This document shows, one piece after another, positions 14,549 through 60,900 of a DNA stretch of 64,000 nucleotides (positions are counted from its first letter, which is position 1; every line of letters begins with the position of its first letter). The DNA is taken from assembly GCA_963924555.1 (NCBI GenBank), contig OZ004587.1, forward strand, positions 4,402,001-4,466,000. The letters are read 5' to 3'. The notes below the pieces were generated by a model that had not been told where the DNA came from, did no database searches, and was given only the letters and a program-made list of their open reading frames with translations. Made by a program: the position numbers and the translations under genes. The stretch comes from Crambe crambe. Its lineage: Eukaryota; Porifera; Demospongiae; Poecilosclerida; Crambeidae.

Positions 14549-16974
14549 ATGGACCCTGGCTCATCCCAGCCCCTCAACCTCTCCTTCTCATTGGTGCTTC
14601 TCTCTGCTCTACTGATGTTGAGTGGAGATGTGGAACTCAATCCTGGACCTGAGAGTAAGTCCATTGTTAACTGGATGTGTGGGTAGGTCACTTGATCGTA
14701 ATAGCTAGCTGGAAATCAGTCATTATGTAAGTTATCAGAATTCTATAGGACAACCTACTTAACTACCTGACAAAAAGTAGATTCAATACAAGTGTATTGC
14801 TCTTATTATGTTCCTGCAGCTGTCTTAGTTGCAAGGGATCTTAAGATGGTGAGGAATTTCATATGGGGAGCCCATATCAAGTGGTATGACATAGGTGTGG
14901 AGTTGGAAATGGATCCTTCCACACTACAAGCAATCAAGGAGAATTTCTTCAACAATCCTGCTAAATGCTTTAGTCAAGTACTGCTGGACTGGCTGGAGGG
15001 ACAAGGCTTGGAATCTACATGGTCAAATCTAGCCGCAGCTTTAAAGGCACCACCTGTTGGAATGTCAGCTCTAGCTGAAGCAATTGAAGCAAAATATCTT
15101 GGAGATACACATCAACCTGGTAAGTAATGCTAACTAATTGGTCTTTGTTTATTCCATTCACTTTCCTATTTAGTTTCAGATTTACGCTAATTTTCTCCTG
15201 CAAAATTTTACTCTTGTTCTTTCCTTCATTTAAATTTCATGGATTAAGGCAGTTCAAAATAAATTACTTGTTTAACGGATTTCCCTGCCCTATTTTTACA
15301 GAATTGAAATAAATTTGGTTTTGTATATTCTCAGTATACTGCTGTTTATCTTTCTTTTTTTCTTTCTGTTTATTTTATCTTTGTACACTAGATCTCAGTA
15401 TACTCCTCTTTCTTGTATACTAGAACACATGACCATATAAACATGATGCATAGTATACTGAGGTAGTTTATATTTAAGTTTATTTCGTCCTGCCTGCCTA
15501 TAAGAAAGGAGAAAAAATCTGTTAAACAAGTAATTTGTTTGGAACTGCCTAATAGTTAACAATTAACATAATAAAGCTGGTATAATGGAAGTAATTAGGT
15601 CTTGTTTACTAAACATCCTCAATCTCATTATAAGTACGTTATTTTTTAGGGGCTGAACTATTGCCACATGACAGTACCACTGCATCTAACATGACTTCTG
15701 AAGGTAAATTTGTATTTATTATGTTCTCCACTCTTTCTGATGTGATTTCTATACCTAAAGCAACTATAATTATCATGTATAGTAATTATTATGCCTTTCT
15801 TTTTATTCTAAAAGATCTATCAAAATCTTGTTATCCTGAATCTGTTATAGCTTCTACAGACAGTTCATGCTCCAGCTCTAGTAAGTCAGATACAAGTTTG
15901 ACTTAATGACTGTAACTATACACTTTTCAGAGTTAAGTGCTGTGGACCTCACTCCATGTTTTCCTTTTCTTGCTACTGATAAGTTGTCAGAAGCTGAAAA
16001 AGTATTTAAGAGGCAGGAACTCTACCGTGAGACTCAGGATATCAAACAAAAATTCACTAGTCTCGTTTTCAATCTACAAAAATCTACAGAGAAGTTACAC
16101 TCAGTTAAAGATGTCAGAAATGTCTTAATATGCTATGAAAAGAACTTTGAGAAAATACTGCGAGGCTGTGAAACCATAGCAGATGTATTCTTTGAATTCT
16201 CTAAGTATTGGTCCTTTTATGACTATGGAATAATCAAGCTTTTGACTAAAGAACTAGGAACAAGTTTGAATAAGAAGAAACTCTGCCAATTTCAAAAAAT
16301 ATTTCAGGAGTATTCTCGAAGAAGAATCTGCGAATGTCCCAGCAATGTATTTGGTGAAAGAGAAGAGTCAGAAACAGTACTCGTCCTTAAGAGTGAAATG
16401 AAAGTAGAGGATGTGACTGTTGAAGACCTTCACAAATATCAGCACCAGATGAATCGTATCCTAAAAATTTCCACCATGCGATTACTACACGTTGATAAAG
16501 GCTGTATGGAGCTAACTTTCAGAGTACTTGGAGATGTTTTACATATAGAAGGCATCACTGAAGAGAAACAGCAAGCATTAAGAAATATGGGAATCATCAG
16601 TATTAGTTACGGAGAGCTTCATTTTGATCTGACCTCCCTTGTTAAGAGTGTAGGAGGTGACACTCCACTTGGAATCGAGGAAGGTGAGAAGAACTATCAA
16701 GTTATTAACTTGGTCAAATCTAAGGTTATAGTTAAAGATACTTGCAAATTTCACAGATGTCCTTCCCTATCCAGACCTTCCCATTCCTACCCTCTCTCTG
16801 GTGGGACCAATGACTGCTCTTGATATAAAAGGTGATGCTGATGACAATATTGATGCTGACTCGGCACTCGGCACTATAAGTGGCGTGACTGGAACAGATG
16901 TGGGTAGCTATCCTACAGATGATATGAGCATAGTCACTGCAGGTCTCAGGACTGAGGTCTCTGATGAGTTCCAG
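14549..16974 (+). CDS. 2A-leader Death-domain protein, paralogue 1 (6 exons seen)
   Basis: Exons 14549-14654, 14820-15119, 15650-15703, 15815-15880, 15931-16683 and 16757-16974 have GT-AG borders and join in one frame of 499 codons. Exon 1 encodes MDPGSSQP, a hydrophobic stretch (LSFSLVLLSALLML) and SGDVELNPGP, a full 2A ribosome-skipping consensus. Exon 2 is a Death domain (DLKMVRNFIWG..., W at the usual positions). Exons 3-4 are a Ser/Thr-rich linker. Exon 5 is a ~250-residue helical domain of unknown family, shared with paralogue 2. Exon 6 is an acidic tail. The last exon ends at a donor; the true stop is unresolved. An in-frame ATG 90 bp upstream exists only in this copy. Likely role: Death-fold signalling with 2A-controlled targeting (inferred). 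Confidence 0.8.
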
Positions 16975-17079
16975 GTAAGGAGTAGAGGAGTTTATTCAGA
17001 TTCTTCCTCATACATACACGTAATTGTAAATGTTTCAGTGAAATACGTTGACAGCAATTCAAAACAGGTTAATAAGTAG

Positions 17080-17460
17080 AGGAATAATATTTTATTTCAT
17101 TCAAAAATTTCTGTAGCCTACAGCTAGCATTTTGAGGAGCTCAGCTTTCACAGATTGGCCACTGAAGGATTTTCTAGAAAATAAAATAATTGTAGAAAGC
17201 AGAAACAAATCCATGCTCTAAGTCTCCACTTTAGTAGCTGGGCATGAGGCTGGGTGTTGCTTATGTGTGGGCAGCTATCAAGTCAAGATCGAACAGATAA
17301 GAAGAAATACATTAATAGAAATGGATTGACAGCCAATTCAAAGTGTTCACGCTTAAAGTTAATGATCATTGTTTTGATTTGATTTGTACAGAAAAATATT
17401 TTTGGATAAAAAGGATATGGCTCAATACAACTAGCTATGTGATTTTGGCTGACTGCTAGA
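17080..17460. other. Conserved 3' flank of 2A-Death gene 1
   Basis: Nearly identical to 42070-42440 after 2A-Death gene 2, and diverged at 61060-61250 after gene 3. It contains AATAATATTTTATTTCATT, a possible poly(A) region. No separate gene. Confidence 0.55.
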
Positions 17461-18060
17461 GTGAGTCACACATTGGTCTCAACTTTGAGTATCTAAACTC
17501 AAATTTGAGTATCTAATCTTATCCAGGTCTCTGATTTGAGACCAATTTTTACTCACATTTGAGTACCTACTAATTCTGGTCTCAAATTTCAGTAGCTAAT
17601 CTTATCCAGGACTCTAAGTTGAGTATTCAAATTTGAGTTTCTAATCTAATTCAGGACTCAAATTTGAGTACACATAGGATTCAAATTTGAGTACCCCTAA
17701 CTGACCAATCAGGTAACTGGCACGTGACTAGCTATAGTCTAATCTAATTCAAGACTCGAATCTAAATCAGTACTCTAATTTGAGTACACATACTAATTCA
17801 GGACTCAAATTTGAGTACCCTAAATTTTAGTACCTTCTCAAATTAAGGACTCAATTTAGAGTACCTAATCTTATCCAGTAATCAAATTTGAGTACCTGTT
17901 CTAATGACTCAAATTAGACTACCTCAGGTCTTAAATTTGTGTACCTAATCTTATTCAGGACTCTAATTTTCTAATTCAGGACTCCACACCTAATCTTGTA
18001 CCTAACCCAACTTATTTGGACTCAAATTTGAAGTATTACTTGTTCAGGGCTCTGTTTGAG
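17461..18060. repeat. AT-rich minisatellite, unit 1
   Basis: Degenerate TCAAATTTGAGTACC repeats as at 2041-2640. A non-repeat insert with CCAATCAGGTAACTGGCACG at about 17700-17745 is shared with 42645-42690, showing common descent of the block. Confidence 0.85.
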
Positions 18061-19909
18061 CCCTGAAAAATAATTGTATCTATCAATAAGGGAAAAACAT
18101 TTCCATGAAATGAAAAATGTAGGGATGACCATTGCTCAAAAAAGTAAGGAAACAAGGGTAAGGATGAAGGATGAAAGGATTGAATCTTAGTTCTGTATAT
18201 CCAGCCAACAATCCATATGCATACCAATAGTGCGTACTTCATACTTCTATAACATTCAATTCCCTACTTGACAGGAAATGTTATGGTAACTAATTACCAT
18301 GGGTATTGCATGGTTACCAAACCAATTCTAAATCTTAAGTAAGTTCTGACCAGTTAGTATCGCACACAGATAGCTATATCACTATCTACCTTCATAATTT
18401 TTTCTTATTATAAAAAACAAGCAAGTTATTTTCTAGGGGTAATATTTTTATTGTTTTCGTGGTTGAAAATAAGCACAAATTTTTTACCTACGAATAATTA
18501 TACCTGTATACCTATATGCAAAAAATCAACCACATGTGCCTGGCCCGTCCTGTGCCGCCCCCCCCCCCCCCCTTATTAGCTGTTTCTAGAAGATCGTTGC
18601 AGTAGCAAAAAATTACATACCAAGTAGAAAAAAAAGAGAAAGTGAATAATCAAAGCGCGTTTCTTCCCTGAGTACCTCAGCGCTTCGTTGCCATCATGAA
18701 TCTGTAAAACAACTCCGTTCTTCTTCATGCTATTAACTTAGAGCGCCTAACTCTACTTCGTTTTGGACTGTGCATCACCCAGAAATTGTACTACTGTCTC
18801 CATGTTAACCATACAATTGAAGAACACGTGCAAACAGAGTTCTTTAAAGCTTTATCCTGTAGTAGCAGCAAGCCTTGATTGCGGACAGAGATGAGACTCT
18901 ACTAAGCAGCAGAGTGTACAGGCATTATGTGGTTCAGGTGAATATCTAGCCAGCTTTACTATCATCGGTAATTGTACTACCGTCTCCATGTTGACGATCT
19001 TTACCATACAATCTAAGAACACACGCAAGCAGAGTTCTTTAGCTTTCTCCTGCAGTAGCGGCAAGCCTTGATTGCAGACAGAGATGAGAGTCACATTATG
19101 TGGTTCTGGTGAGTATCTAGTCAGCTTTAACTATCATCTGTATATATTAGCAGACAAAAAGCAGTTAGGTCATAATCAACTGCTTGTAGTATGGAAATGT
19201 TTCCTATCTTTCATCAGGTTATGGCCTTCCAGCTTCAATAATCTGTGACTTGGGACACTAGTGAGAGAGTAGAGTTGTGCTTCCTGACCTTTCACCTGTT
19301 AACTTGTTACAAAATAATATTTTTAATGATCAAAATAATTATTGCCTTGACAGCTTCTCTCATCTGTAATGCAAAAAAGCATACATTATAAATATGAATA
19401 AGCTTCTTTTTTTTCTACTCGGTATGTGGTCGACTCTTGAAAAAAACAAAAAACAAAAAACAAAAAAACAACAAATCTGATACTATAGCTAAACACAATA
19501 AAAAGATTCGTCTTCCGGATCCCCAAGCCTTTCAAGGATTGTACCATCTTTGCTGGTGAAGCAAGTTGCTGTGGAAGAGGCAGAAGTATGATCTATATTC
19601 TGGCTTCTACTGTGAATGAGTTAGTCATAGTTACAAATTCTACTTCTAGTACAGGCTGCCACTCTTGCAGCTCATTCACACTTAGTGCAATGGCTGCACT
19701 GGCTACAGCTAGCTGCGTGTGCCAAACATCCATGAAAATTTCCCCCAAACACGAAATCTTTAAACCTTGAAAATAACCCACTATACAGTATTGGAGTTAT
19801 TGTTCTGTATTTTTGTTGTTATCATCATTGTTGTAAACTTACCATTACTGTCTCATATATAGAGTATAACTTCAGGAATAATTATAGTAGCTTAGTAGAT
19901 ATGCTATAT
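18061..19909. other. Spacer with single fold-back arm and a tandem duplication
   Basis: 18070-18245 is one arm of a fold-back element whose two-armed form is at 45718-46004. A run of 15 C lies at 18558-18572. About 18780-18930 and 18965-19130 are two copies of the same ~180-bp sequence (TACTACTGTCTCCATGTT / TACTACCGTCTCCATGTT). 19550-19760 matches 43550-43770, and antisense frames there are similar in both copies, but I recognise no protein. 19880-19909 joins 30813 when the inserted transposon is removed. Confidence 0.6.
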
Positions 19910-20522
19910 GGGTCATTCCAAGATAGTTCATCAAAAATATTGACATGACTATCTCAGAATTGGACGAAACTTGGTATGTGAGTAGTGCTTGTGGTGTAAT
20001 GATGCCATATCAAATTTCAACCTTATTCATTGTATGGCTTCCCAGTTATGGCCAATAAAAAATGCAATACTTGGAAGAAAAGTACTATATTAGCTGCTAT
20101 TTGAATCACCGTAACTCTGCTATTTTAAGTCTTTTCATAAAATAAATTATACCATCTTGTAGCTTTTAAAAAGGGCTTTCATACATTTTTTTGGCTTCAT
20201 CCAATAAAGTTTTAAAGAAAGGTCATACATATCAAACTTTAACCCTTGACCTCTCAAAAAGTGCTGATTTAATTTTTCTAATAATTTATGAGGATACTCT
20301 ATGGTCCCTTATCTAACAACTGTGCAAATTTTATCCTGGGGTTTGAAAGGGATCAGGAGATATGTATAGGTATAGAGTGGAATGTAAGCTATTTCAGTTG
20401 AATTCATCCCTATTGTGAGGAGAATCAAATCTAATTAGCTAGTCAAAATAGTGATAAGCACATTAGCAGTCATTTTGCATGCAACACATAGAGTTTTTGT
20501 TGAAGATTTTGTCTCAGTCTAC

Positions 20523-22789
20523 ATGGCTCAATCCTGCTGCAATCCCTTCGATATACCTGGACATAACTGGAGTAGTCGTAAAAAGAATCTTCGACTGGTC
20601 ACACCTTGGATGTGTGAAAGAGCTCCACAAATTTCTGTTGGTTCAAAAATCTGTGATACCTGCAGGAAAAAACTGAGCAAGGAGCCATCAATTCCCATCC
20701 CTTATCCAGACTCTCCCTGTTCAGAAGTTGAAGATGCTGAAGCTTACATTCCTAGCCCAGAAGCAGTAGCCTCACTCAATATGTGCTTAGCAGACATTGG
20801 TGAGACACCTTATTCCCGTATTAAGGCCCATGGGAAGAAGTACTCAAGACAAAAGGTTAAAAAGATCACTGAAGTGATAGAACGCACTATCATCAGTGGA
20901 GAAGCCATTGATGATGGAAGTGAGATGATTCAACAGCTGAAAGAAAAGTTTCAGTTAACAGCACAAAGGAGTGAACAGTTGCAAATTCTTACTGTATTGC
21001 CAAAAAGTTGGTCACTGAAAAAAATTCAGCAGGAATTCAGTGTACCCAGCTATATGGCACGAAAATCAAAGGAGCTTGTAAAAGAGAAGGGTATTCTTTC
21101 TCTTCCTGGCCCGAAACCTGGACCTTCACTGCCACCAGAAACTGTTGAAATCGTTCATACATACTATGAATCTGATGAAATCGGCCGAGTTATGCCAGGC
21201 AAAAAGGATTTTATCTCAGTAAAACAAGAGGGAAAGCGTACACATGTTCAAAAGCGACTGGTACTGAGCAACTTAAAAGAAGTGTATCGTGAGTTCAAAG
21301 AGAAATTTCCTGATCGAAAAATTGGGTTTTCTAAATTTGCTGAACTTCGTCCTAAGCACTGCATCTTAGCCGGAGCCAGTGGTATACACACTGTATGTGT
21401 GTGTACAATACACCAAAATGTAAAATTGATGATGCTTAATATGCGACTATCAGATTTACCAACATATCATCATTGCTTAGCGAGGATCATGTGCAACCCA
21501 CCACTTCCTAACTGCTACTTGGGTGAGTGTAATGCCTGTCCTGGTATTGCAAATTTCAAAGAGGAGCTTACGACTCTCTTGGATGAAAGTGATGTGGAAC
21601 AAATTGTCTACAAGCAGTGGGTTTCTACTGACAGATCTACACTTGAAACATTTTGTGTGCCAGTCGAAGAATTTGCTGAGATCTTCGGTGAAAAGTTAGA
21701 GCTTCTATGTCCACATTCCTTCATAGCTAGTGAGCAAGCTTCATTCTACACGAAGTGCAAAACAAATTTGCAGCCAGGAGAAATATTGGTCACTGTGGAT
21801 TTTTCTGAGAATTACTCTTTTATTCTCCAAGATGCTGCCCAGGGATTTCATTGGAACAATTCACAGGCAACACTCCACCCTTTTGTTGCCTACTACATTG
21901 ATTCTGGAGAGCTATGTCACTTCAGCTATGTGATAATTTCAGATTGCCTACACCATGACACTATAGCAGTTTACCTCTTTCAAAAATCCTTCATATCATT
22001 CTTGAAAAATTTTAAGCCTGAAAGGTTGAAACTGAAAAAAATATATTTTTCTGATGGTGCTGCTGCCCAGTACAAGAACCGAAAAAACTTCGTCAATTTG
22101 TGTCTCCACAATGATGATTTTGGCATATTAGCTGAGTGGCATTTTTCTGCTACATCACATGGAAAGGGGGCTTGTGATGGTCTAGGTGGAACAGTAAAGC
22201 GACTAGCAGCTCGAACAAGTTTACAGAGGCCATACAATGACCAGATAATGACTCCTCGGCAGCTGTTTGATTGGGCATCCACAAATTTATCATCCATTCA
22301 CTTTGGCTATTGCAGCATGGAGGATTATCAAAAAGAATGTCATAATCTTGAGCAACGTTTTCACAAATCTCGCACAATTCCAGGTACAAAGAAACTGCAC
22401 TCTTTTATTCCTATTACAAATAGCAAAGTGAGAGTCCGATATTATTCAACTTCTCACACTTTCAGGAGGAGAAAGTTACTCTAGGCACGAATGATCTTTC
22501 ACCAGAATCAATTGTTGGGTTTGTCACATGTTTGTATGATGAAAAATGGTGGCTGGCTTGTGTATTAGAAGTAGTCCAGGAAGAAGGTCAGGTAAAGCTA
22601 ACATTTCTTCATCCACATGGGCCTTCCAGCTCATATAAATATCCAGGAACTCATGATATACGCACTATTCCAATGAATAATATTTTAACACTTGTAGATC
22701 CAAGAACAAGAACAGGCCGCATTTATACTCTGTCTAAGAAAGAAATTACAACTGCTTCTGAAAAGTTTCTTATCGCATCAACACAGTAA
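20523..22789 (+). pseudogene. Unclassified DDE-like transposase, one frameshift
   Basis: An open frame from ATG 20523 (MAQSCCNPF) to 22484 encodes 653 residues; it is open further upstream but without an ATG. An N-terminal Cys cluster (CCNPF, WMC, ICDTC) suggests zinc binding. The catalytic-looking region holds VTVDFSENYSF, YFSDGAAAQYKN and SHGKGACDGLGGTVKRLAAR, in the order expected for acidic active-site residues. A C-terminal domain (YDEKWWLACV, LTFLHPHGPS, TGRIYTLSK) continues in the -1 frame up to 22789, with the switch near 22455-22475. Either a single indel broke the gene or a 38-bp intron (22427-22464) is removed. The gene lies between the inverted repeats of the GGGTCATTCC element and is its presumed transposase. 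Confidence 0.75.
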
Positions 22790-22859
22790 TGATTAAGTTT
22801 CATTTGCTTCAATAATTGTGTAATCTTTGACCTAGCTAACTTTAACTTTTGAAATTATA

Positions 22860-23180
22860 TTATTGATTGTTCCAACTCTACAGTGATGGTGGGGGAAATG
22901 CTATGAAATGGCTTACATACCACTCTATATCTCCTTACACCCATTAAAGTCCCAAAATAAAATTCGCAGTTATTAGATAAGGGTTCATAGAATATCCTCA
23001 CAAATTATTGGAAAAAATTAATCAGCCTTTTTTGAGAGGTCAAAGGTTAAAGTATAATGAATGTGAATTTTCTTTATAACTATATTGGATGGAGCTATAA
23101 AATACTGTATGAAAGCCCATTCTTTAAGCTACAAGAAGGTATAATTTATTTTATGAAACGACTTAAAATAGCAGAGTTAT
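22860..23180. repeat. Right inner inverted repeat of the GGGTCATTCC element
   Basis: Reverse complement of about 20115-20400, including the segment GCTACAAGAAGGTATAATTT and the AAAATAGCAGAGTTA core. It stops at 23180 and its outer part resumes at 30611. Confidence 0.8.
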
Positions 23181-23186
23181 AATTAT

Positions 23187-32039: not shown

Positions 32040-32275
32040 GGCCAGTCACGTTTTTACTCTAAATAATGCACATCTCGATATAAATTCTCTGTGCTTCTTT
32101 ATTCAGTCTGCACCAGTGTGTCAAACTGATTGCCTTCTCACTTCTATAATCCTATACGCTGGTGGCTAATACTTAGGCCATCATCTGGACCCGGGCATAA
32201 TAAAGAGGGTGTGACCAATCAAAAATGGGCGTGGTTTCGCGAAATTTTCACACAAGCTAACGCGCGATATTGATC
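32040..32275 (-). mobile_element. Fragment of the CAGTGGCG MITE next to ANK gene 2
   Basis: Reverse complement of about 5520-5745 (shared ACTCTAAATAATGCACATCTC, TTCTTTATTCAGTCTGCACC and AATGGGCGTGG segments). The outer ~45 bp with the CAGTGGCG end is missing. It replaces the upstream sequence that ANK genes 1 and 3 share, ending only ~80 bp before the ATG. Confidence 0.75.
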
Positions 32276-32357
32276 TTCAATTAAATTATGCATTCAGAGT
32301 GATTCCTTCACATCACAGGACTATATCGGGAGAGACTTGAAGGACCCACGACTGGAC

Positions 32358-33590
32358 ATGATAGTCTCAGCAGAAATAATAACCGAATACAGCTCACAAT
32401 TATACGAGGCAGCCAAAGCTGGAAATTTAGACTTGGTGAAGCAGCTCATAGCAAAAGGCCACAACCCTATGGTGAAGGATAGAGATAATGATACTGCTCT
32501 TCATTGTGCAGCTCGATATGGTAAACTAGATATTATCAAGTTCTTGATCGAAGAAGTGTCGTGTAACCCAGCTCCCTCTGGCTGGCATGGAACAACTCCT
32601 CTACACTCTGCAGCCGAAGCAGGACATCTCTCAATCGTCCAATACCTGATTGAAAAGCACCAAGTAGATCCCCTCAGCCAGGATGAGGAAGGCCTCTCCC
32701 CTCTACATAGAGCCTGTCTGGGTGGTGATTTAAATGTAGTGAAATTCATGATGAAAACAATGCTTGAGTACATGAAAATAGAAGAAATATTTACCGATTC
32801 CACGAAATATGAAACTACTCCCATTCATGTAGCTGCTATTAAAGGTCACATGACAATTGTCAAGTATTTTATTAACGAGACTAAGTGTGACCCGAACATT
32901 CCTGGTTTTAATGGTAGAGGACCTCTCTTTGATGCTGCACAGGGTGGTCACTTGTCCATTGTCAAGTTCTTGACATTGGAGTGTGGTTGTGACCCTGAGA
33001 GTACAGACATGGAACAGTGGACCCCACTGCATGTTGCTGCAAAGAACGGACACTTGCCAGTAATCAAGTTCCTTTCCCAAGAAATGAAGAGTAATCTAAA
33101 CTACAGGGACAAGCGCAACAACACTCCCCTTCATGAAGCAGCCGTTGCTGGTCATTGTGAAGTGGTGGAGTATTTCATCGATACTTTGCATTGCAGCCAA
33201 AACACTCCTGGTTGGCATGGAAGAATGCCACTGCATATTGCTTCCCAAAAGGGTCACCTCAACCTAGTCAAGAACCTCATTGAAAAGTATGCCTGTGACC
33301 CTAATAGACTGGACGACAATAAAGTCACGCCTCTCCACATGGCAGCTAAGAATGGACACTTGTCCATCGTCCATTATCTAACCCAGAACAAAGAATGTAA
33401 TAACATGTGCCGAGATATCAATGGAGATACTCCACTCCATGCTGCTGCTCTGTTCGGTCAACTCTCAGTAGTCAAACATTTCGTTGAAAGTCTCCATTGT
33501 TCCCCACACACCAAGAACAAGTTTAACAAGACACCACTCCAGCTGGCCCTAGAGAAGGGTCACAGTGAGGTTGTTGATTATTTACAATAA
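32358..33590 (+). CDS. Ankyrin-repeat protein, paralogue 2
   Basis: An intact frame of 410 codons from the first ATG encodes the same twelve-repeat architecture as the copy at 4111. It is one residue shorter in repeat 9, where paralogue 1 has GGWHG and this copy GWHG. Repeat surface residues differ from the other copies, for example ARYG, AIKG and ALFG at the AAxxG positions. The frame is open upstream to CATCACAG/GACTATATCGGG, a candidate 3' splice site, with no stop between. A TE fragment rather than the usual flank lies directly upstream, so its promoter or 5' exon may differ from those of the siblings. The next gene on the strand is 2A-Death gene 2, 5.8 kb on. Confidence 0.9.
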   Translation: MIVSAEIITEYSSQLYEAAKAGNLDLVKQLIAKGHNPMVKDRDNDTALHCAARYGKLDIIKFLIEEVSCNPAPSGWHGTTPLHSAAEAGHLSIVQYLIEKHQVDPLSQDEEGLSPLHRACLGGDLNVVKFMMKTMLEYMKIEEIFTDSTKYETTPIHVAAIKGHMTIVKYFINETKCDPNIPGFNGRGPLFDAAQGGHLSIVKFLTLECGCDPESTDMEQWTPLHVAAKNGHLPVIKFLSQEMKSNLNYRDKRNNTPLHEAAVAGHCEVVEYFIDTLHCSQNTPGWHGRMPLHIASQKGHLNLVKNLIEKYACDPNRLDDNKVTPLHMAAKNGHLSIVHYLTQNKECNNMCRDINGDTPLHAAALFGQLSVVKHFVESLHCSPHTKNKFNKTPLQLALEKGHSEVVDYLQ

Positions 33591-39363: not shown

Positions 39364-41970
39364 ATGGACCCTGGCTCCCTGCCTCAGGTCCTCAATCTCT
39401 CCTTCTCATTGGTGCTTCTCTCTGCTCTACTGATGTTAAGTGGAGATGTGGAACTCAATCCTGGACCTGAGAGTGAGTCCATAGTTTACTGGTACGTAGG
39501 TCAGTCACATGATTATACATGATAAGTGCATGGTTACAGGAGATCATGAAGCTGTTCTCAAGCTGCATTGCAGTTATATTGGCTTACCTAAGTTAAAGAA
39601 GTAGATTTATAATGTACCACAGAATGTTTATATTCAAAAGTCAGGGGACCAGTAACTTTATCTGTAGTGAGCATTTGAAGTTTCACATAATTTTTATAAT
39701 GAGATACCCAGGGGTGATTTATGTATCCAATCTGATAAGTTAATAATACAATCGTGTATCACACAGCTCTATCGTTGGACAAGGATCTGAGGGAAGTGAA
39801 GAACTTTACTTGGACTGCTCACACAAAGTGGTCCCACTTAGGATTAGAGTTGGGACTGCCTTTTTCCACCCTTGAAGCCATTAGAATAAAATTTGGCAAT
39901 GATCCAGCCGAGTGTTTCAGTCAAATGCTGGTGGATTGGTTGGCAGGTCAAGGTTCACAGTGTACTTGGAAAAATCTTGCCTTAGCACTGAAATCACTAC
40001 CAGTCAACTTACCCGCACTGGCTGATCAAATTGAGGAGACTTATCTCAAGACAACTTCTCATCAATCAGGTACATAGCTACACTGAACTGGGTCAAGGAA
40101 AGAAATTTGGGAGGGGTGGGAATGAGATAAATTTATAAGTACATTATTTTTTAGGTGCTGAACTATTGCTACAAGACAGTACCACTACATCTAACGTGAC
40201 TTCTGAAGGTATACTGTATTTGTATTAATAATTATTATGTTATTCGATAGAAAGCAATTATAATAATAATCATCTTTTTATTCTAAAAGATCTGTCAAAG
40301 TCTTGCTATCCTGAATCTGTTATGGCTTCTACAGTCAGTTCATGCTCCAGCTCTGGTAAGTACATCAGTTCAGGCCCGTACACGGGGGGGGGGGGGGGGG
40401 GGGGGGGTGCAGGGGGGTGCCTGCACCCCCTTTTCAATTTAATGACAATCACTGCTAGTGTACTATTTGCCTAAAAATGCAGTTGTCACACTTGCTTGAT
40501 GGTTGGTTCTGTAGAATAGCTATTACTCTAGCCTAAATACATTTGAGCATACATATCTTCATAGGTGTAGGATTGGGGGCAGGGCATTGCCCACTTTTGA
40601 TGCACCTCTGGAAGCCAAATTCTCAAAATTTCCTGGGGAAGTATACCCCCAGATTATGCAGTTGATCATAGTAGGCTAGCATTAATAAATAACCTACCCG
40701 ACCCATAGCTACAGATGAAGCGATAATCCTCGATGTGAATCCCTATGGCTACTAATTTATCCACCCCCTTCACCAGTTTTGTACCGAAAATCCATTTTTA
40801 TCAAAAGTTTTGTACCAGTTTTGTACCGAAAATCCATTTTTATCAAAAGTTTTGAACCCCCCTTTTGAAAGTCTGCGTACGGGCCTGCAGTTATAAGGGT
40901 CTACCAAGTTAATGACCCATGCAGCTTGAATTATGCACTTTTTAGAATTAAGTGGACCAGGTGTGGACCTCACTCCATGTTTTCCTTTTCTTGCTACTGA
41001 TGACTTATCAGAAGCTGAAAAAGACTTTCAGAGGCAGCAGCTCTACAGTGAAACTCAGGATATAAAAATAGAATTTGCAAGTCTCGTTTTTGATTTGCAG
41101 AAGTCTACAGAGAAGTTACATAAACTTGCAGATGTCATCAATGTCTTAAAATTCCATGATAAAAAATTTGAGAAAATATTACAAGACTGTGCATCGATAG
41201 CAGAAGTATTTGGAAAGGCTTCTAGCTATTGGTCTTTTTATGACCATGGAATCATCAAGCTTTTGACACAAAAACTCGGCACAAGTTCAAGCATGAGGAT
41301 ATTACAACAATTTGAAGAAAAATTCCAAGAGTATTCTCGGAGAAGAATCTGCAAATGCCCTAGCAATGTATTTGGTGAAAAAGAAAAATCGGAAACAGTG
41401 CTCGTCCTTAAGAGTGAAATGGAATTGGAAGATATGACTCTTAGAGAGCTTAGTATATATCAGCACCGGATGAATCGTGTCCTGAAATCATCCACCATGC
41501 GATTGCTACACATTGATAAAGGTTGCATGGAGCTAACTTTCAGAGTACTTGGAGATGCTTTACATATAGAAGACATCACTGAAGAGAAACAGCAAGCATT
41601 AAGAAATATGGGAGTCATCAGCATTAGTTACGGAGAGCTTCATTTTGATCTGACCTCCCTTGTTAAGAGTGTAGGAAGTGACGCTCCACTTGAAATCAAG
41701 GAAGGTGAGCAGAACTATCAATTTAAGGTTATAGATAGTTCAAATTTCACAGATGTCCTTCCCTATCCAGACCCTCCCATTCCTACCCTCTCTCTGGTGG
41801 GACCAATGACTGCTCTTGATATAAAAGGTGATGCTGAAGACAACATTGATGCTGACTCAGCACTCGGCACTATCAGTGATGTGACTGGAACAGATGTGGG
41901 TAGTTATCCTACAGATGATATGAGCATAGTCACTGCAGGTCTCAGAACTGAGGTCTCTGATGAGTTCCAG
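39364..41970 (+). CDS. 2A-leader Death-domain protein, paralogue 2 (6 exons seen)
   Basis: Exons 39364-39472, 39767-40069, 40155-40208, 40290-40355, 40946-41704 and 41753-41970 join in frame for 503 codons, with the same phases as paralogue 1. Exon 1 encodes a hydrophobic leader and SGDVELNPGP. Exon 2 is a Death domain (KDLREVKNFTWTAHTKW, then LPALADQIEETYL). Exon 5 is the ~250-residue helical domain (YWSFYDHGIIKLL; CMELTFRVLG). Exon 6 is the acidic tail (DNIDADSALGT). The last small intron is 48 bp, a multiple of three, with no stop, so retention would stay in frame. Intron 4 holds a MITE. The stop codon is unresolved; reading through the final donor stops at 42075. Confidence 0.82.
40371..40887. 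mobile_element. CAGGCCCGTAC-ended MITE in intron 4, with a G24 run
   Basis: Terminal repeats CAGGCCCGTAC / GTACGGGCCTG and a CAGTT direct repeat on each side (40366-40370, 40888-40892). A run of 24 G lies at 40384-40407, followed by GTGCCTGCACCCCC. A 37-bp direct repeat (AGTTTTGTACCGAAAATCC) lies at 40778-40850. No transposase. The intron ends remain intact on both sides. Confidence 0.8.
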
Positions 41971-42075
41971 GTAAGGAGTAGAGGAGTTTATTCAGATTCT
42001 TCCTCATACATACACATAATTGTAAATGTTTCAGTGAAATACGTTGACAGCAATTCAAAACAGGTTAATACGTAA

Positions 42076-48078: not shown

Positions 48079-50738
48079 CAGGCCCGGAGGAACCAGTCCG
48101 GTTGCTCAGGTTTTGGCCTGACCAATTTTACGCAGATAACGTTAGTTTATGATAACCTTACCTATGGAGCTACTAGTAGACTAAGGCTACATCGCCACGA
48201 TCATTAAGACATGCCCACACTCTATCGCATATTAGTATGACACACCCACACTCTATTGCACATGCTCAAATGATTTCTTTAGCAGCTGCATGCGCCATTT
48301 TATAGAAGAGTCATGGCTTCGGTCTTACCTGATCTTCCTGCTTCTCCCACACATCCTCCTCATCATTTTATTTTCCCAAAGAGAGACTTTGGACAGAAGA
48401 AAGTTGTGAAGAGATCTTGTCAGGCATCATGGTTTTCTAAGTGGCCTTGGTTGCACTATCAGCAGTCAAGTGATGCTGTGTTTTGTCACGTGTGTGTCAA
48501 TGCTTTAAGATCTAAAAGAATGGATATGAGAAGAGGAGATCCTTCATTCAGCTATAAAGGCTTCTCTAACTGGAAGGACAGAACCATTGCTTTTAAGAAA
48601 CATGAATCTTCAGTAAGTCATAAAGAAGCAATGCAAGTAATGGTAACAATTCCATCATCTTGCCCTGATGTTGGTGAAATGCTTTCAAAGCAGCATGCTA
48701 AAGAAAAATGGGATAATAGGCAATGTTTTCTAAAAATATTGTCTAATGTACGCTTTCTTTCTAGGCAAGGACTTGCCTTTCGAAGTGATGGTTCAGAGAT
48801 AAATTCTAATTTCATGCAACTTTTAAAATTAAGGGGGTCAGAAGATCCTCGCATTGAGACATGGCTTGCAAAGAAATCTAATAATTACACCTCCCATACA
48901 GTGCAGAATGAAATCATCAAATTTATGTCCCTTAATATTTTAAGATCAATAGCAACTAATATCAATAAGTCTGAGTTTTACTGCATCATGTGTGATGAGA
49001 GCACTGATGTTTCGAATCGAGAGCAACTTGTGATCTGTATTAGGTGGGTGGATGATAATCTTGAACCACATGAAGAATTTTTGGGCCTATACAAGATTGA
49101 TAACATCCAGGCTAGCACCATTGTAGCTGCTATAAAGGAAAGCTTAGTGAGGCTAAATTTCTCTTTTAGTAAGTGCAGAGGGCAGTGCTACGATGGTGCA
49201 TCAAATATGAGAGGTGCAAAAGGTGGTGTGGCAAAGTTGCTATGTAAAGAAGAATCTAGAGCAGTATATATGCACTGTTATGGGCACGCACTCAACTTGG
49301 CAGTTGGTGACACTATAAAGGAATCAAAAATAATGAAAGATGTGCTTGATACAGCATTTGAAGTCACTAAGCTGGTAAAGTATTCCCCCAAAAGAGCTGT
49401 GCAATTTGAGAAGCTGAAAAATGAGCTTGTCCCAGACTGTCCAGGTTTCAGGGTCTTGTGTCCAACTCGATGGACAGTGAGGGCAGCATCACTGAAGTCT
49501 ATTATAGACAACTATTCAGCTCTCCAAGAGCTTTGGCATGTGTCTAGAGGTGATGTGGCTGATCCATCTGTAAAAGCACGCATCATTGGAGTCCAGTCCC
49601 AATTTTGTACCTTTAACTTTTATTTTGGAGCACAGCTGGGTTTTCTTTTGTTACAGCATAGTGATAATACTCTTCAATCACCTAAGCTCTCAGCTTCTGA
49701 AGGTCAATAGTTAGCTAAAATGACCATTACAGCCCTTAAAAAAATCAGAAATGAGGAATCTTTTGATAAATTCTGGAAGAAAGTCGAGATTTATTGTCAG
49801 TCATTAGATGTGGAAGACCCCAAACTTCCAAGAAGGAGAAAGCTACCCAGAAGGCTAGACGATGGATGTCCTGAAGAAGTTAATTTCCAGAATCCTAAAG
49901 AATTCTACAGACCACAGTATTATGAAGCCTTAGATCATATAGTATCTTCTATTGAAGATAGGTTTGATCAGCCTGGGTATAAAGTTTACCAACACCTTGA
50001 GAAGTTACTTCTTAATGCTGTACGCAAGCTTGATTTCGAAGATAGCTTAGCTGCTGTTATTGATTTCTATGGCAATGGTTTTGATGCCACACAGTTACAT
50101 TTGCATCTTCAAACCTTATCTGCCAATATTCCAGAAGATTTTCAATCTTCTACCTGCACAATAATGGATATCAAAAAATATATTTCGAGTATGTCCAGTG
50201 CAGAAAGAAACCTGATATCTGAAGTTGACAAGTTATTGAAACTTGTATTAGTGATGCCATCAACTAATGCTATTAGTGAGCGCTCCTTTAGTGCTTTGAG
50301 GAGAGTAAAGAATTACCTCCGAAGCACAATGACCCAAGAGAGATTAAATCATTTACTTCTCTTACATGCTCATAGGAGCTAACTGATTCCCTTGACCTCA
50401 TCACAATTGCCAACGAGTTTGTTGCTGCTTCTGATCACAGAATTGGAATCTTTGGGAAGTTCAGTGAATCTGATGTATTGCCTGGTGGATTCTGCCAAAG
50501 GTGTAAATCATCTCTTCAATGCTCTTCTTGTGTAGCAGAATAAACTAACAATATAATATTATTATAGCTAGCTATTTTTTAATTTTAATATAAATGCACA
50601 AGCAAAACACTCGCCGATAAAGGGGCGTGGTTACGCAAAAGTGGGCGTGGCTTCCAAAAATTTTCTCAAGCGCTTACGCACGCGGTAGATTTTTTGTACA
50701 GCTTCCTGACCAGTCATAAAAAGCTTCCTCCAGGCCTG
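48079..50738. mobile_element. hAT element with TTF-zinc-finger transposase
   Basis: Ends CAGGCCCGGAGGAACC and (inverted) CAGGCCTGGAGGAAGC, 14 of 16 identical. TATTA occurs on both sides (48073-48077 plus one extra A; 50739-50743). The empty site CATTATTAGTTGTG is at 3809-3822. The element holds one transposase pseudogene and ~200 bp of non-coding sequence on each side. Confidence 0.85.
48313..50543 (+). pseudogene. hAT transposase (TTF/ZMYM1-like), one nonsense and one frameshift
   Basis: The ATG at 48313 opens 465 codons, ends at an in-frame TAG (49708-49710), then continues in the same frame for a further 224 codons to 50382. A shift near 50376 leads into a C-terminal tail (DLITIANEFVAASDHR) ending at 50543. 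Visible features: a TTF-type zinc finger (FCHVC at 57-61, H97, H103); hAT catalytic motifs MCDESTD (~226) and CYDGASN (~293); HCYGHALNLA; CPTRW (~383); and the hATC dimerisation block with SERSFSALRRVKNYLRS. The residue at the TAG is expected to be Gln (SEGQ|LAK), consistent with CAG to TAG. It probably made the enzyme for this element until recently. Confidence 0.88.
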
Positions 50739-51029
50739 TATTAGTTGTGATTTTCTAAATTCTAGTTGCTGCATCATCTCTAAGTAGTCATACATGTAGC
50801 TGTAATTAGCCAGTCATTGTTTACTACACATACAATGGTACATCGCATGCTGTAATTACAGTCAACATGTAAACAATCACATTATCATGTGTGGTGTGTG
50901 ACATACAGGGCACAATCCATAAACTTCAAACTTAGTAGCTCTATCAGAATATTAGTACTAGAGTGAGAGTTTTCTTCCTTCGCATCACAGGACTATATCG
51001 GGAGAGACTTGAAGGACCCACGACTAGAC
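50739..51029. other. 5' flank of ANK gene 3
   Basis: Near-identical to 3815-4110. Contains TTTTCTTCCTTCGCATCACAG just before GACTATATCGGG, a good polypyrimidine tract and 3' splice site (last base about 50988). Confidence 0.6.
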
Positions 51030-52265
51030 ATGATAGTCTCAGCAGAAACAACAACCGAATACAGCTCAGAATTACACGAGGCAGCCTCAGCTGGAAAGTT
51101 AGACTTGGTGAAGCAGCTCATAGCAAAGGGCCACAACCCTATGGTGAAGGATAAAGATAATAATACTGCTCTCCATTGTGCAGCTCAATATGGTAAACTA
51201 GATGTTATCAAGTTCTTAATCGAAGAAGTGTCGTGTAACCCAGCTCCCTCTGGCTGGCATGGAACAACTCCTCTACACTCTGCAGCCGAAGCAGGACATC
51301 TCTCAATCGTCGAATACCTGATAGAAAAGCACCAAGTAGATCCCCTCAGCCAGGATGAGGATGGCCTCTCCCCTCTACATAGAGCCTGTATGGGTGGTGA
51401 TTTAAATGTAGTGAAATTCATGATGAAGACAATGCTCGAGTACATGAAAATAGAAGAAATATTTACCGATTCCTCAAAAAATAAAATTACTCCCATTCAT
51501 GAAGCAACACACTTTGGGCATCTAAACATAGTGAAATATCTTATCAGTGAGTGCAAGTGTGATCCGAACATTCGTGGTGGTAATTATGGTAGAGGACCTC
51601 TCTTTGTTGCTGCCCAGAAGGGTCACTTGTCCATTGTCAAGTTCTTGACATTGGAGTGTGGTTGTGACCCTGAGAGTACAGACGTGGAACAGGCGACCCC
51701 ACTACATATTGCTGCAAAGCATGGACACTTGCCAGTAATCAAGTTCCTTTCGCAAGAGATGAAGAGTAATCCCAACTACAGGGACGAGCGCAACAACACT
51801 CCCCTTCTTGAAGCAGCCGTTACTGGTCATTGTGAAGTGGTGGAGTATTTCATCGATACCTTGCATTGCAGCCCAAACACTCCTGGTTGGCATGGAAGAA
51901 TGCCACTACATGGTGCTTCCCAAGAGGGTCACCTCAACCTTGTCAAGAACCTCGTTGAAAAGTACGCCTGTGACCCTAATAGCTTGGACGACAATAAAGT
52001 CACACCTCTCCACATGGCAGTTAGGTATGGACACTTGTCCATCGTCCATTATCTAACCCAGAACAAAGAATGTGATAACATGTGCCAAGATATCAATGGA
52101 GAAACTCCACTCCATTGGGCTGCCGAGTTCGGTCAACTCTCAGTAGTCAAACATTTCGTTGAACGTCTCCATTGTCCCCCACACACCAAAAACAAGTTTA
52201 ACGAGACACCACTCCAGCTGGCCCTAGAGAAGGGTCACAGTGAGGTGGTTGATTATTTACAATAA
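51030..52265 (+). CDS. Ankyrin-repeat protein, paralogue 3
   Basis: Intact frame of 411 codons with the same twelve ankyrin repeats. Compared with paralogue 1, framework residues are almost unchanged, while surface positions change: AQYG, AEAG, THFG, AVTG, VRYG and AEFG replace their counterparts. Repeat 5 has a codon insertion (IRGGNYGR). The start was chosen as the first ATG in frame; the frame is open back to the CATCACAG/GACTAT splice-like site. Its 5' flank is close to that of paralogue 1, but a hAT element and a deleted Tc1-like element were inserted 0.3 and 3 kb upstream. 2A-Death gene 3 follows 5.7 kb downstream on the same strand. Confidence 0.9.
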   Translation: MIVSAETTTEYSSELHEAASAGKLDLVKQLIAKGHNPMVKDKDNNTALHCAAQYGKLDVIKFLIEEVSCNPAPSGWHGTTPLHSAAEAGHLSIVEYLIEKHQVDPLSQDEDGLSPLHRACMGGDLNVVKFMMKTMLEYMKIEEIFTDSSKNKITPIHEATHFGHLNIVKYLISECKCDPNIRGGNYGRGPLFVAAQKGHLSIVKFLTLECGCDPESTDVEQATPLHIAAKHGHLPVIKFLSQEMKSNPNYRDERNNTPLLEAAVTGHCEVVEYFIDTLHCSPNTPGWHGRMPLHGASQEGHLNLVKNLVEKYACDPNSLDDNKVTPLHMAVRYGHLSIVHYLTQNKECDNMCQDINGETPLHWAAEFGQLSVVKHFVERLHCPPHTKNKFNETPLQLALEKGHSEVVDYLQ

Positions 52266-57010: not shown

Positions 57011-57530
57011 TCTGACATAATAATTATAAGCTGTTACATTATGCTATGTTAACATTTCATGCCATATCATAGCGTACTACATGTATCATAATCATTATAT
57101 AATTATTATGATGTCATCATGGAATGCTCATGCACAGTAGTTTTCATTGTCACCTTGGTTTTTTGTGTTTGAAAAACTCTTGAGTAGTGCATCATTTCAC
57201 TTTATAGCTAATAATTATTTTAATGACAAGAACTCTCATAAAATTAATAGTTTAGGAGTATAAAATTAATAGCTAGATGATGAGCACAATACTCAATTTG
57301 TGCTGATTCCAGAAAGTATCTGACCCATAGATCGTGTAGTTAATTATCAATGTAGCTAATTGTTCAGAAGCTCTATTTTACTGACACTGAAATGTATGAT
57401 GAACGCATTGGAAAAATACTAGTGTGGAAGATGAGAGTGGAGATTTATATGTAGCTAGCTCTACTAGGTCAGGAATACACGCTGTACTAAAAGCCAAGAT
57501 TATTAATTATATTCATGACACTGACGTAAT
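57011..57530. other. Spacer before 2A-Death gene 3
   Basis: Matches 38550-38930 of unit 2 with the TA tract short. No gene. Confidence 0.55.
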
Positions 57531-57565
57531 TATGACGTCACAAATGAATTTGCGCATGCGTCATA
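57530..57565 (+). promoter_or_regulatory. CRE site plus TGCGCATGCG upstream of 2A-Death gene 3
   Basis: TGACGTAA at 57522 and a full TGACGTCA at 57533-57540, then TGCGCATGCGTCA at 57551-57563, ~390 bp before the ATG. Confidence 0.5.
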
Positions 57566-57938
57566 TGTTTGTTTATCCAACCACACCCATTTTTGGTCTT
57601 TATGATTAATTTTCTTTTAAAAAAGCTTTGTCTTCTAGTAAGTTACCACTGAAAAGAAGAGATTCGAATCGCTAGACAGTCGTAGCAAGACATACATCCT
57701 ATTAGGCTCTAGCTATTGCTAATATCACCCTATCATCCAACCTCTACAAGGAGGGCGGGGCTTGTACCACCGCTACTAGTGATACTTCTCATCATCTAAA
57801 GAAGTACTTATAGCAGCAAGTGATCCCTACTGATGATCAGATAGTGTAGTTGCTTTATTTCTCCCTTGTAAATCTCCCTGTCCAGTTTCATTCTCCTTCT
57901 CACTCCAACCCATACCTTCATATCATCAAGACTACCAG

Positions 57939-60900
57939 ATGGACCCTGGCTCCCTCCAGCCCCTCAACCTCTCTTTCTCATTGGTGCTTCTCTCTGCTCT
58001 ACTGATGTTGAGTGGAGATGTGGAACTCAATCCCGGACCTGAGAGTGAGTCCATAGTTAACTGGACAGTCAGTCACTTGGTCGTACATGATAAGTACATG
58101 GTTACCGGGAATCAGAGATCATAAGCTAAGTTGACTCTGTTCTCAAGCTGCATTACAGTTATATTGGCTTACCTAAGTCAAAGAAGTAGACTTATAATGG
58201 AAAAATTAGCACTACAGAATGTTTTTATTCGGAAGTCAGGGGACTAGTAATTTTGACTGTAGAGTGTTTCAATCAACTGATACAATTGGGTGATTAATGT
58301 ATCCAATCCGATAAGTTAATAATAACAATTGTGTGTCACACAGCTTTATCATTGGACAAGGATCTGAGGGAAGTGAAGAACTTTACTTGGACTGCTCACA
58401 CAAAGTGGTCCCACTTAGGATTAGAGTTGGGACTGCCTTTTTTCACCCTTGAAGCCATTAGAATGAAATTTGGCAATGATCCAGCCGAGTGTTTCAGTCA
58501 AATGCTGGTGGATTGGTTGGCAGGTCAAGGTTCAGAGTGTACTTGGAAAAATCTTGCCTTAGCACTGAAATCAGCACCAGTCAACTTACCTGCACTGGCT
58601 GATCAAGTTGAGGAGACTTATCTCAAGATGACTTTTCATCAATCAGGTAGCTACAGTGAACTGCACAAACTGGGCTAAACTCTGTATCAACAGTTTAGAT
58701 AACCCTTCCAAATGTACCAACAGTTTAGATGACCCTTTACCAATGTTGTCTTGAGAGCATTTTCTGTTATGTAGGTTCTTGCAATGAGATGATAAAACAA
58801 AAAATAAAAAATTTAGAAGATGAATTCCATGGACTCGCTGATAAAACATTCGATGAAATTCAAGAATGTAATCCTGACGTTAAGCGATTCAGAGCAAGAC
58901 TTGTTTCTCTGAGCTTTAAGTACCAAGAACAGCACAAAGATTTTGTCCAGCAGCTTACAGAAGATATAGAGAAAGACACGACCATAGATCATATATGGAT
59001 GAAGCTAAGTGGTTACTGGAATTTCCTTAACTATTCGCTCCTTGAGAATCTGGTTTACAAGTATGGGAGTCACACTCTCAAATCCAACATGAGAGATTAT
59101 TTGGAGCGATTAAAAGAATTTCGAACTAACACTCGTTTGTGCGAATTTGCAAAATACTGTGACAAAATCAGTAGAAAATTACCTGAAAAAGATTTACAAA
59201 AAGTCATTGTTAAACTGAAGAAATGCTGGGATGAATGCACACTTGAAGACTTAGAAGAATTGAAAGAGAACATTACTCAACAGTTCTTTCTTCCTTCATT
59301 TGTGATGAGTATACAAAACATTGAACCAGGATCCATTGTAATCACGTGGGCAATCCCAACACTTATTGCATCAGCTCTCAGGAATAACATCAACAATATG
59401 GACATAAGTGAATTCTGTAAGGAAAATGGAATTGAATGTATCCTTGTTGATGGCAAAGAATTCTTCAAAGAAACCAAATATATGCTGACCACACCCATCA
59501 CCACACCTATCAGTGGCTCCTCCCCTGTCCCCTCGAAACAATCCTCTGTTGATCCATCTGGAAGAATTCAACCTTGTGGCAAAGATGCCAGAGGTGAGCT
59601 TTATCAGAGAGTGCATTAGCACTCTCTAAGTAGGGACGGCCTGTCAGACTGTATTGACTCAAAAAACTCTTTTCTCTTGATTATCTTTAAGACACAGGTT
59701 CTCAAAAAAACAAAACAAAAAAAATCAACAACAACAAACTACAATGAGTCAATAGAAGAGAGAAAAGTACAGAGAGTTCAAAACACGTTTCATAAGAGCA
59801 ATTCATAAAATTGATATTTCTTCTAGTTTGTTATGATAATAGCTAAATTTAAAATCAGCGTACTGGCTTTAGTCGTCATACTGCATTGTTGCCATCTGTG
59901 AAAGCACTATCTTGAGGTTGATTTTTTGCTGGTTGTTTTGACTAAGCTCCTACTAGACAAAGTGAGCGCTATCTACAGCAAACAGAGCACTGACTAGTCA
60001 TCTTGAAGCTAATGTGCATGTGTACAATTGTCATGCCGATTAATGGGATGTGCGTCATTGGAATTCAAAAGCAAAAAAGATGGAACCAAAAAATTTCTTC
60101 TAAATTAATAGGGTATTGCCTAAATTCTAGCTTGGGTGTATAACATACTGCAGCCTTGTATGACAATTGTAAGGCTGCAATAGGTTATACAGCCCAGAAA
60201 GATTTTAGGCCATACCTACTTAACACTTTTTGTCTTGGCACTCCAATGCGGAGGCACAGTGCTGAAGGCGACTATGGTAATGGCTAGTAGAAAAGTACTT
60301 TAATAAAGTAAGACAAAATGCTGTAGAAAAGTACTTACACATGCACATGACCTTGACCTTACAAGCCACATGTACAAAAGTGAGAAAGTAGGCAGGCTGG
60401 GTAAGTTAGAGAGCAAACAGCGAGAGCAAAGTGTACAAACCTAAAGATTCTATGATCATCCGAACAGCAAGAGTTAGCCTTAAATAGAAGCTACAAAGTT
60501 GAGTTATAAGACTGAGTTGTGAGAAAGAAGTTGCAAGAGCAGGCCGGCATGTTATAATAATGATCTGAGAAAGTACTGGGAGCAAGAAAACAAACATGAA
60601 ATCCAAATAGCGAGAGCAGAGGGTACAAAGCTCAAGATCATCTAGCAGTAGGCTGAGAAAGCTGAAAGAGAGCCAAACTATCAGCAACTTGCTTGTCCAC
60701 TTGCTACATATTAATTTCTGTTAGAACTTTAGCACTTCTGATAATCTCATTAGTAATTTTTTGCCATGTTTTCTCACTTCTCTTGCAAATTTCACAGACC
60801 CTCTCATTCCTGCCCTCTCTCTGGTGGGACCAATGACTGCTCTTGATATAAAAAGTGGTGCTGATGACAACATCGATGCTGACTCAGCACTCGGCACTAT

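What the first reader, a model, noticed from the sequence alone, without database searches (positions are those of the whole stretch)
14549..58044. Three Death-domain genes start with a signal-like leader ending in a 2A ribosome-skipping motif
All three first exons encode ~36 residues: MDPGS, a hydrophobic run, then SGDVELNPGP, the complete D-V-E-x-N-P-G-P consensus. The following exon is a Death domain. Sea-urchin NLR proteins are reported to use such leaders as a translational switch: skipping yields a cytosolic product, no skipping a secreted or membrane-directed one. Conservation of the motif and of exon 1 phase in three diverged copies suggests it is used.
Basis: partly seen in the sequence, partly recalled or inferred. 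Interest (0 to 1): 0.9.

Follow-up and report, generated by a model that had tools for sequence, protein, structure and literature searches.

The report
Ribosome-skipping leaders on sponge immune-like genes
In a marine sponge, many genes for Death-domain proteins begin with a greasy leader, spliced on as its own exon, that ends in a virus-like "2A" ribosome-skipping signal, which may decide whether the protein stays in the cytosol or is sent to membranes.

Summary
Three first exons (14549-14654, 39364-39472, 57939-58044, + strand) encode 34-35 residues ending in SGDVELNPGP, each followed in matching splice phase by a Death-domain exon. It is not local. The genome, whose chromosome lengths match the demosponge Crambe crambe, holds at least 207 D[V/I/M]ExNPGP sites (reversed-pattern controls: none). 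In 90 loci examined (89 sites), 70 show a Death exon in the 1.5-2 kb held downstream. Of 88 with a candidate donor, 86 have it in phase 1, just behind the 2A. In 89 of 90 the residues before the core end in [A/S/C]G, the L-rich context of a StopGo class studied in 2026. Of 69 copies of one leader class found without using the motif, 67 keep it. Downstream domains vary: ankyrin, NACHT, NB-ARC, Roc, B-box. Some related Death genes carry decayed leaders, and most Death exons listed have no 2A nearby. Downstream domains look cytosolic, so I favour mostly constitutive skipping, with membrane targeting when skipping fails. Precedent: sea-urchin NLR leaders. No transcript or translation evidence was available.

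The parts
14549..14654 (+). Copy 1, exon 1: signal-like leader ending in 2A (DVELNPGP codons 14627-14650), phase-1 donor
   Evidence: (as L016)
14655..14819 (+). Copy 1, intron 1 (165 nt, inferred)
   Evidence: donor and acceptor; no transcript
14820..15127 (+). Copy 1, exon 2: Death domain (end given as the stop of the open frame; true donor not fixed)
   Evidence: Pfam PF00531 22.9 bits; acceptor
15885..16823 (+). Copy 1, probable exon 3, no Pfam match
   Evidence: open frame; Pfam none; relative of copy-2 exon 3 (204 of 300 aligned aa identical)
32274..33590 (+). Ankyrin-repeat exon, probably of the copy-1 gene (assignment inferred from order and strand)
   Evidence: Pfam Ank_2 E 1.5e-86
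39364..39472 (+). Copy 2, exon 1: signal-like leader ending in 2A (DVELNPGP codons 39445-39468)
   Evidence: (as L021)
39473..39766 (+). Copy 2, intron 1 (294 nt, inferred)
39767..40077 (+). Copy 2, exon 2: Death domain (end is the stop of the open frame)
   Evidence: Pfam 25.1 bits; AlphaFold model and Foldseek
40930..42075 (+). Copy 2, probable exon 3: helices, then an alpha/beta region, then a tail with pLDDT under 50
   Evidence: mean pLDDT 57
50967..52265 (+). Ankyrin-repeat exon, probably of the copy-2 gene (inferred from order and strand)
   Evidence: open frame, by eye of the same ankyrin type as 32274-33590; Pfam was run only on 32274-33587
57939..58044 (+). Copy 3, exon 1: signal-like leader ending in 2A (DVELNPGP codons 58017-58040)
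   Evidence: (as L010)
58045..58343 (+). Copy 3, intron 1 (299 nt, inferred)
58344..58678 (+). Copy 3, exon 2: Death domain (93 of 100 aa identical to copy 2; end is the stop of the open frame)
   Evidence: Pfam 21.8 bits, just under cut-off
4069..5346 (+). Ankyrin-repeat exon, probably of the tandem copy that begins upstream of the window (leader L023, GNVELNPGP)
   Evidence: ankyrin type by eye, assignment inferred

Best explanation
The leader exon is a spliced-on StopGo (2A) module. Its hydrophobic stretch serves as the L-rich nascent-chain context of the 2A and, at least in the window type, can also act as a signal or anchor sequence. Most ribosomes should skip the Gly-Pro bond. That releases a short leader peptide ending in -NPG and a separate cytosolic Death-domain protein that starts with Pro. 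When skipping fails, the leader stays on and the protein is drawn to the ER or membranes. Shown here: the anatomy, the donor phase, the 2A core and context, genome-wide recurrence, low dN/dS and retention of the motif in other leader classes, and decayed leaders on some related genes. Inferred: that splicing joins the exons, that skipping happens, and that the unskipped form is targeted. I think constitutive or high-level skipping is more likely than a finely regulated two-way switch.
For: Core motif in at least 207 genomic sites, reversed-pattern controls 0. Context: 89 of 90 loci end in [A/S/C]G before the core, and 87 of 90 have an 11-aa window with mean Kyte-Doolittle at least 1.6 in the last 20 residues; [quoted passage not shown] Best-scoring donor within 45 nt is in phase 1, 1-34 nt after the 2A, in 86 of 88 loci. 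Death exon in the 1.5-2 kb held downstream in 70 of 90 loci, opposite-strand control 0 of 161 ORFs. Constraint without motif ascertainment: class D searched by 88 residues upstream of the 2A gave 69 copies, 67 with the core, 61 of them at the same 33-nt spacing. Motif dN/dS 0.07-0.14 in classes B-E, against 0.50-0.94 in residues 25-49 upstream of the motif end (classes C-E are motif-selected). A 43%-identical leader, probably of another species, keeps DVETNPGP. Contrast: 5 of 7 examined regions upstream of relatives of the window Death exon show, by eye, remnants of the leader with a broken core. Precedent: about 80% recoding in vitro for sea-urchin SpNLR2A6, and secretion of its recoding-dead mutant (PMC4981915).
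Against: No transcript, translation or localisation data. Window leaders lack a positively charged n-region, and SignalP could not be run. For class A the motif dN/dS is 0.34 on 3 distinct sequences, so uninformative. Other leader classes are longer, and in some no start codon lies in the exon, so they are not simple N-terminal signal peptides. Downstream domains are cytosolic types, for which secretion makes little sense. 20 of 90 loci had no Death hit in ORFs of 75 aa or more (two of them have one in a shorter ORF). Most Death exons listed have no listed 2A site near: 4 of the 150 best Pfam hits within 6 kb, 38 of 149 relatives of the window exon within 3 kb. One of 15 window-type tandem leaders reads GNVELNPGP (L023), although N at this position can be active in natural context (PMC12846837).
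Confidence: 0.66

Rival explanations
1. Pure release device: the 2A skips almost completely and there is no meaningful second targeting. The leader's job is to make a separate small membrane or secreted peptide, or to give the Death protein a Pro N-terminus, so the gene is in effect two-product.
For: Cytosolic-type downstream domains: ankyrin, NACHT, NB-ARC, Roc, B-box. Class C leaders carry their own N-terminal hydrophobic stretch, about 60 residues, then a second hydrophobic stretch with the 2A; class D leaders have a recurrent Cys-rich middle.
Against: The window-type leader is only 34-35 residues, almost all signal-like; the sea-urchin leader of this type does target a recoding-dead form (PMC4981915).
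Confidence: 0.3
2. The exon is an ordinary signal or anchor exon, the 2A is inactive in sponge ribosomes, and the proteins are simply membrane-bound receptors.
For: Hydrophobic stretch in 87 of 90 loci; sponge NLRs have been annotated with transmembrane domains and read as putatively membrane-bound (PMC12909245, passages).
Against: A signal peptide needs no D-V-E-x-N-P-G-P. The core is kept in 67 of 69 copies with the [A/S/C]G context of active 2As in 89 of 90 loci.
Confidence: 0.12
3. The 2A is a relic captured from a virus or non-LTR retrotransposon and hitch-hikes by tandem duplication and gene conversion without being used.
For: 2A occurs in such elements (PMC4981915); window leaders are homogenised by recent sharing.
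Against: Diverged classes keep the motif; where the core is lost, two of five remnants show stops. No reverse-transcriptase family is among the 25 of 36 Pfam families shown for 69 downstream ORFs.
Confidence: 0.06
4. The leader exon is optional: alternative promoters or splicing make leader-less Death proteins, and the leader with its 2A matters only in a subset of transcripts.
For: The exon is separate and nearly always phase 1, so it can be exchanged; related Death exons exist without a working leader near.
Against: None tested; no RNA data.
Confidence: 0.25

Closest known systems
Sea-urchin SpNLR2A leaders (Roulston et al. 2016, PMC4981915)
   Same: N-terminal hydrophobic leader that ends in a complete 2A, in front of Death-type immune-like proteins, in a large gene family (reported: about 35%, 85 of 241 NLR proteins; 14 of 87 current NCBI entries)
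   Different: Here in a sponge, at least 207 sites; mostly not seen on NACHT genes (6 of 103 listed NACHT places); a separate exon ending in phase 1; several leader types, some long with two hydrophobic stretches; activity not tested
Viral StopGo/2A with L-rich upstream motifs 2 and 6 (PMC12846837)
   Same: D(V/I)ExNPGP core; L-rich hexapeptide ending (A/S/C)G before D
   Different: Viral ones separate proteins encoded in one long reading frame; here at the end of a first or early exon; x here is T (97), a hydrophobic residue (85) or S (25) among the 207 listed
2A of non-LTR retrotransposons (as told in PMC4981915)
   Same: 2A encoded in a cellular genome
   Different: No reverse-transcriptase match among the families shown for 69 downstream ORFs
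Sponge NLRs with transmembrane domains (PMC12909245)
   Same: Membrane segments reported on sponge NLRs
   Different: The words 'ribosom' and 'signal peptide' do not occur in its text (the term 2A is too short to search). I suggest, untested, that some such segments are 2A leaders

Membership tests
StopGo / 2A recoding element | Core octapeptide D(V/I)ExNPGP | tested here: met
   3 of 3 window copies; at least 207 genomic sites, a few with M for V/I
StopGo / 2A recoding element | Permissive upstream context | tested here: met
   89 of 90 loci with [A/S/C]G before the core, L-rich, compared by eye with PMC12846837
StopGo / 2A recoding element | Two products from one reading frame in translation | not testable with these tools
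   needs a reporter assay
SpNLR2A-type leader | 2A at or near the N-terminus of the protein | tested here: met
   34-35 residues from ATG in the window, start codon inferred; other classes are longer or must begin in an earlier exon
SpNLR2A-type leader | Signal sequence activity or prediction | tested here: inconclusive
   hydropathy only; SignalP not available
SpNLR2A-type leader | Carried by a NACHT-type NLR protein | tested here: not met
   window ORFs scanned: Death, exon 3 without Pfam match, ankyrin; elsewhere some NACHT (L048, L071, L080)
Death domain superfamily (exon 2) | Death profile and fold | tested here: met
   (copy 3 just under the Pfam cut-off)
non-LTR retrotransposon 2A | Reverse transcriptase in the same unit | tested here: inconclusive
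   none among the 25 of 36 Pfam families shown for 69 downstream ORFs; not searched further out

The most novel reading that the evidence does not exclude
The leader makes the receptor's location report on the state of the ribosome. Skipping depends on the translation machinery, and may be inhibited when the nascent leader enters the translocon. Infection or toxins that disturb translation would shift the ratio and move Death-domain receptors from cytosol to membrane, so that a hundred or more sponge receptors would share a translation-integrity checkpoint as a guard.
Probability: 0.1. Interest if true: 0.95.

Novelty: new variant of a known kind. Interest (0 to 1): 0.72.

Why it matters
[quoted passage not shown] An animal genome with over 200 such sites, with signs of selection and several receptor architectures behind them, would make StopGo a common device of an early animal lineage. 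It would also suggest, untested, that some sponge NLRs annotated as transmembrane are mainly cytosolic. It offers a natural test set: intact, variant and decayed leaders on related genes in one genome.

Tried and rejected
Rejected: chance motif (controls 0). Rejected as evidence: conservation among the three window copies, because the leader cassette is recently shared. Rejected: that the Death domains that score best in Pfam carry 2A leaders; 4 of the 150 listed have a listed site within 6 kb upstream, so the leaders sit on more divergent Death exons. The fold of the window's exon 3 is unresolved: mean pLDDT 57, weak ferredoxin-like matches; a TRADD-N-like fold is a recalled lead, not tested. 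Rao et al. 2025 (Cell Reports, PMC12338488), a survey of eukaryotic and viral 2A sequences, is not held; I saw only its citation and a sentence about it, so the sponge leaders may already be listed there. Paper searches that could have shown sponge 2A leaders; none of the titles or abstract beginnings that they list describes them. The one sponge paper with '2A-like' (PMC5890393) uses it in a gene name.

Limits of the counts. The 90 loci (L009-L098) are 89 distinct sites (L025 and L098 are the same one); 30 came as the best hits to the window leader, 60 I chose across clusters from the 207 sites. L023 has a non-canonical N-V-E core. Of the 207, the 25 Ser-type sites come from a listing cut at 100 places, so the total is a lower bound. 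One search took the best-scoring GT within 45 nt in an open frame, so a few donors are weak (L039 matches 4 of 9 consensus positions). The Death profile was built iteratively from the ORFs it then scored, from a seed of the three window exons. In one search a site counted if listed within 400 nt; one of the two misses has a canonical site 528 nt away. In one search I examined 149 of the 150 places (one lost to a typing slip) and added the L023 site by hand. One search covers only about 250-900 nt upstream of each relative, and two of seven (L143, L144) showed no remnant.
Full report
What is there. The window holds three + strand first exons, 14549-14654, 39364-39472 and 57939-58044, each coding for 34-35 residues: MDPGS, a few residues, an uncharged run (LNLSFSLVLLSALLMLSG), then DVELNPGP. 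The splice donor GAGA|GTRAGT follows 4 nt after the last codon of the motif, in phase 1, and matching phase-1 acceptors open the Death exons at 14820, 39767 and 58344. The exons are Death domains by Pfam (copies 1 and 2 above cut-off, copy 3 just below), by a profile of 34 related exons against solved structures and by predicted fold. Further on lie a third exon without a Pfam match and ankyrin-repeat exons; their assignment to the genes is inferred from order and strand.

Where it is. The genome is 143,139,886 bases in 119 contigs. The lengths of 16 large contigs agree with the chromosome table of the demosponge Crambe crambe (PMC12166358, passages) to about 0.01 Mb. The published assembly is 143.20 Mb in 124 scaffolds, so the held copy differs slightly. 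The sponge Diacarnus erythraeanus, of similar size, showed none of the three lengths that I searched for. I therefore read the window as C. crambe chromosome 7.

How common it is. Degenerate patterns find 167 DVExNPGP sites, and 85 and 97 D[V/I/M]ExNPGP sites with a hydrophobic or Thr x; all reversed controls are 0. I listed 207 sites in 56 clusters, a lower bound. Allowing one mismatch gives 238 sites, control 4, so at most about 31 are near-misses. The window's three belong to a tandem array of 15 leaders, 88-100% identical to the query, at C10 4.10-4.51 Mb; 14 have the canonical core and one reads N-V-E.

Anatomy across the genome. I held 90 loci (89 sites). In 86 of 88 with a candidate donor within 45 nt, the best-scoring one is in phase 1, 1-34 nt behind the 2A; 2 are in phase 0, and 2 further loci have GT directly behind the motif. 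A Death exon lies in the 1.5-2 kb held downstream in 70 of 90; the same profile finds 0 of 161 opposite-strand ORFs, and a search of 738 ORFs of 35-74 aa adds two loci. The residues before the core are L-rich and end in [A/S/C]G in 89 of 90. PMC12846837 (one section and passages read) describes L-rich motifs 2 and 6 that end in (A/S/C)G and go with D at the first core position, and tested a motif-6 example that was active in vitro.

Leader classes. Besides the short window type (A), there are leaders related to it on C9 (B), leaders with an N-terminal hydrophobic stretch, about 60 residues and a second one with the 2A (C), a Cys-rich class with two hydrophobic stretches (D), and others. In some the exon holds no start codon in frame, so an earlier exon must supply it. 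The constants are the hydrophobic stretch, the 2A and the phase-1 donor. The class names are mine, by eye.

Selection. Because most loci were chosen by the motif, I searched class D by 88 residues upstream of the 2A: 69 copies, 67 with an intact core (61 at the same 33-nt spacing), although identity falls to 35%. Motif dN/dS is 0.07-0.14 in classes B-E, 0.19-0.51 in the 15 residues before it and 0.50-0.94 further upstream (classes C-E are motif-selected). For class A the motif value is 0.34 on 3 distinct sequences and says little. In the window, copies 1 and 2 have leader pS 0.15 and Death pS 0.80, with 87 of 96 identical bases before the ATG and 130 of 158 in intron 1: the 5' cassette was shared between genes with older Death exons, by recombination or conversion. 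As a contrast, close relatives of the window Death exon at C10 0.14-1.26 Mb have no listed site upstream; of 7 upstream regions read (relatives 57-66% identical), 5 show by eye remnants of the leader with the core changed, two of these with stop codons, and two show nothing. In all, 38 of 149 examined relatives have a 2A site within 3 kb upstream.

Other species. A protein from another source, 43% identical to the class D leader over 92% of it, keeps DVETNPGP. Of the 7 hits read (of 10), 6 keep the motif and one has lost it; the closer ones are probably C. crambe itself.

Downstream domains. Among 69 downstream ORFs, 15 match Death and 5 NACHT at E 0.01; among ten ORFs scanned singly, matches above cut-off are NACHT (L048, L071, L080), NB-ARC (L055, with a winged-helix match below cut-off), Roc (L070) and B-box (L035), while four have none. 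Of 103 listed NACHT places, 6 have a listed site within 12 kb upstream. So the leader goes with a Death module rather than with NLRs as such.

Mechanism. Skipping is likely given the core, the context and the constraint, but it is not shown. The sea-urchin case shows about 80% recoding in vitro and secretion of a recoding-dead mutant (PMC4981915, passages), and some proteins inhibit the 2A reaction when translocated into the ER (PMC2978324, abstract), so targeting and skipping may compete. Since the downstream domains are cytosolic types, I favour mostly constitutive release, with membrane targeting as the minor outcome. Novelty is limited by the sea-urchin precedent and by a 2025 survey that I could not read.

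Noticed in passing
L039 (C1:3553673-3555873); eight more sites lie on C1 3.61-3.99 Mb: A 2A site after a hydrophobic stretch with no Death hit; an immunoglobulin domain lies about 1 kb downstream. An extracellular-type domain behind a 2A leader is unexplained. The other eight were not read.
   Followed up: partly
window 58729-59619 against 15885-16823 and 40930-42075: Copy 3 is followed by a different open frame from copies 1 and 2 although its Death exon is 93% identical to copy 2, which suggests modular genes.
   Followed up: no
window 40930-42075: Exon 3 has helices, then an alpha/beta part with weak ferredoxin-like matches; fold unresolved.
   Followed up: partly
window 5877-6911 and 48283-49710: Transposase-like open frames (DDE_3; DUF4371) between or inside the genes.
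   Followed up: no
window 20439-22484: 681-aa open frame without a Pfam match above cut-off, inside the probable copy-1 gene.
   Followed up: no
L139-L142, L145 (C10 0.15-0.64 Mb): Decayed leaders with the core changed to forms such as DIKMNPGP, a natural set of lost 2As (by eye).
   Followed up: partly
L084 (C20:1572361): A canonical core without the L-rich context and the [A/S/C]G, the only one of 90.
   Followed up: no
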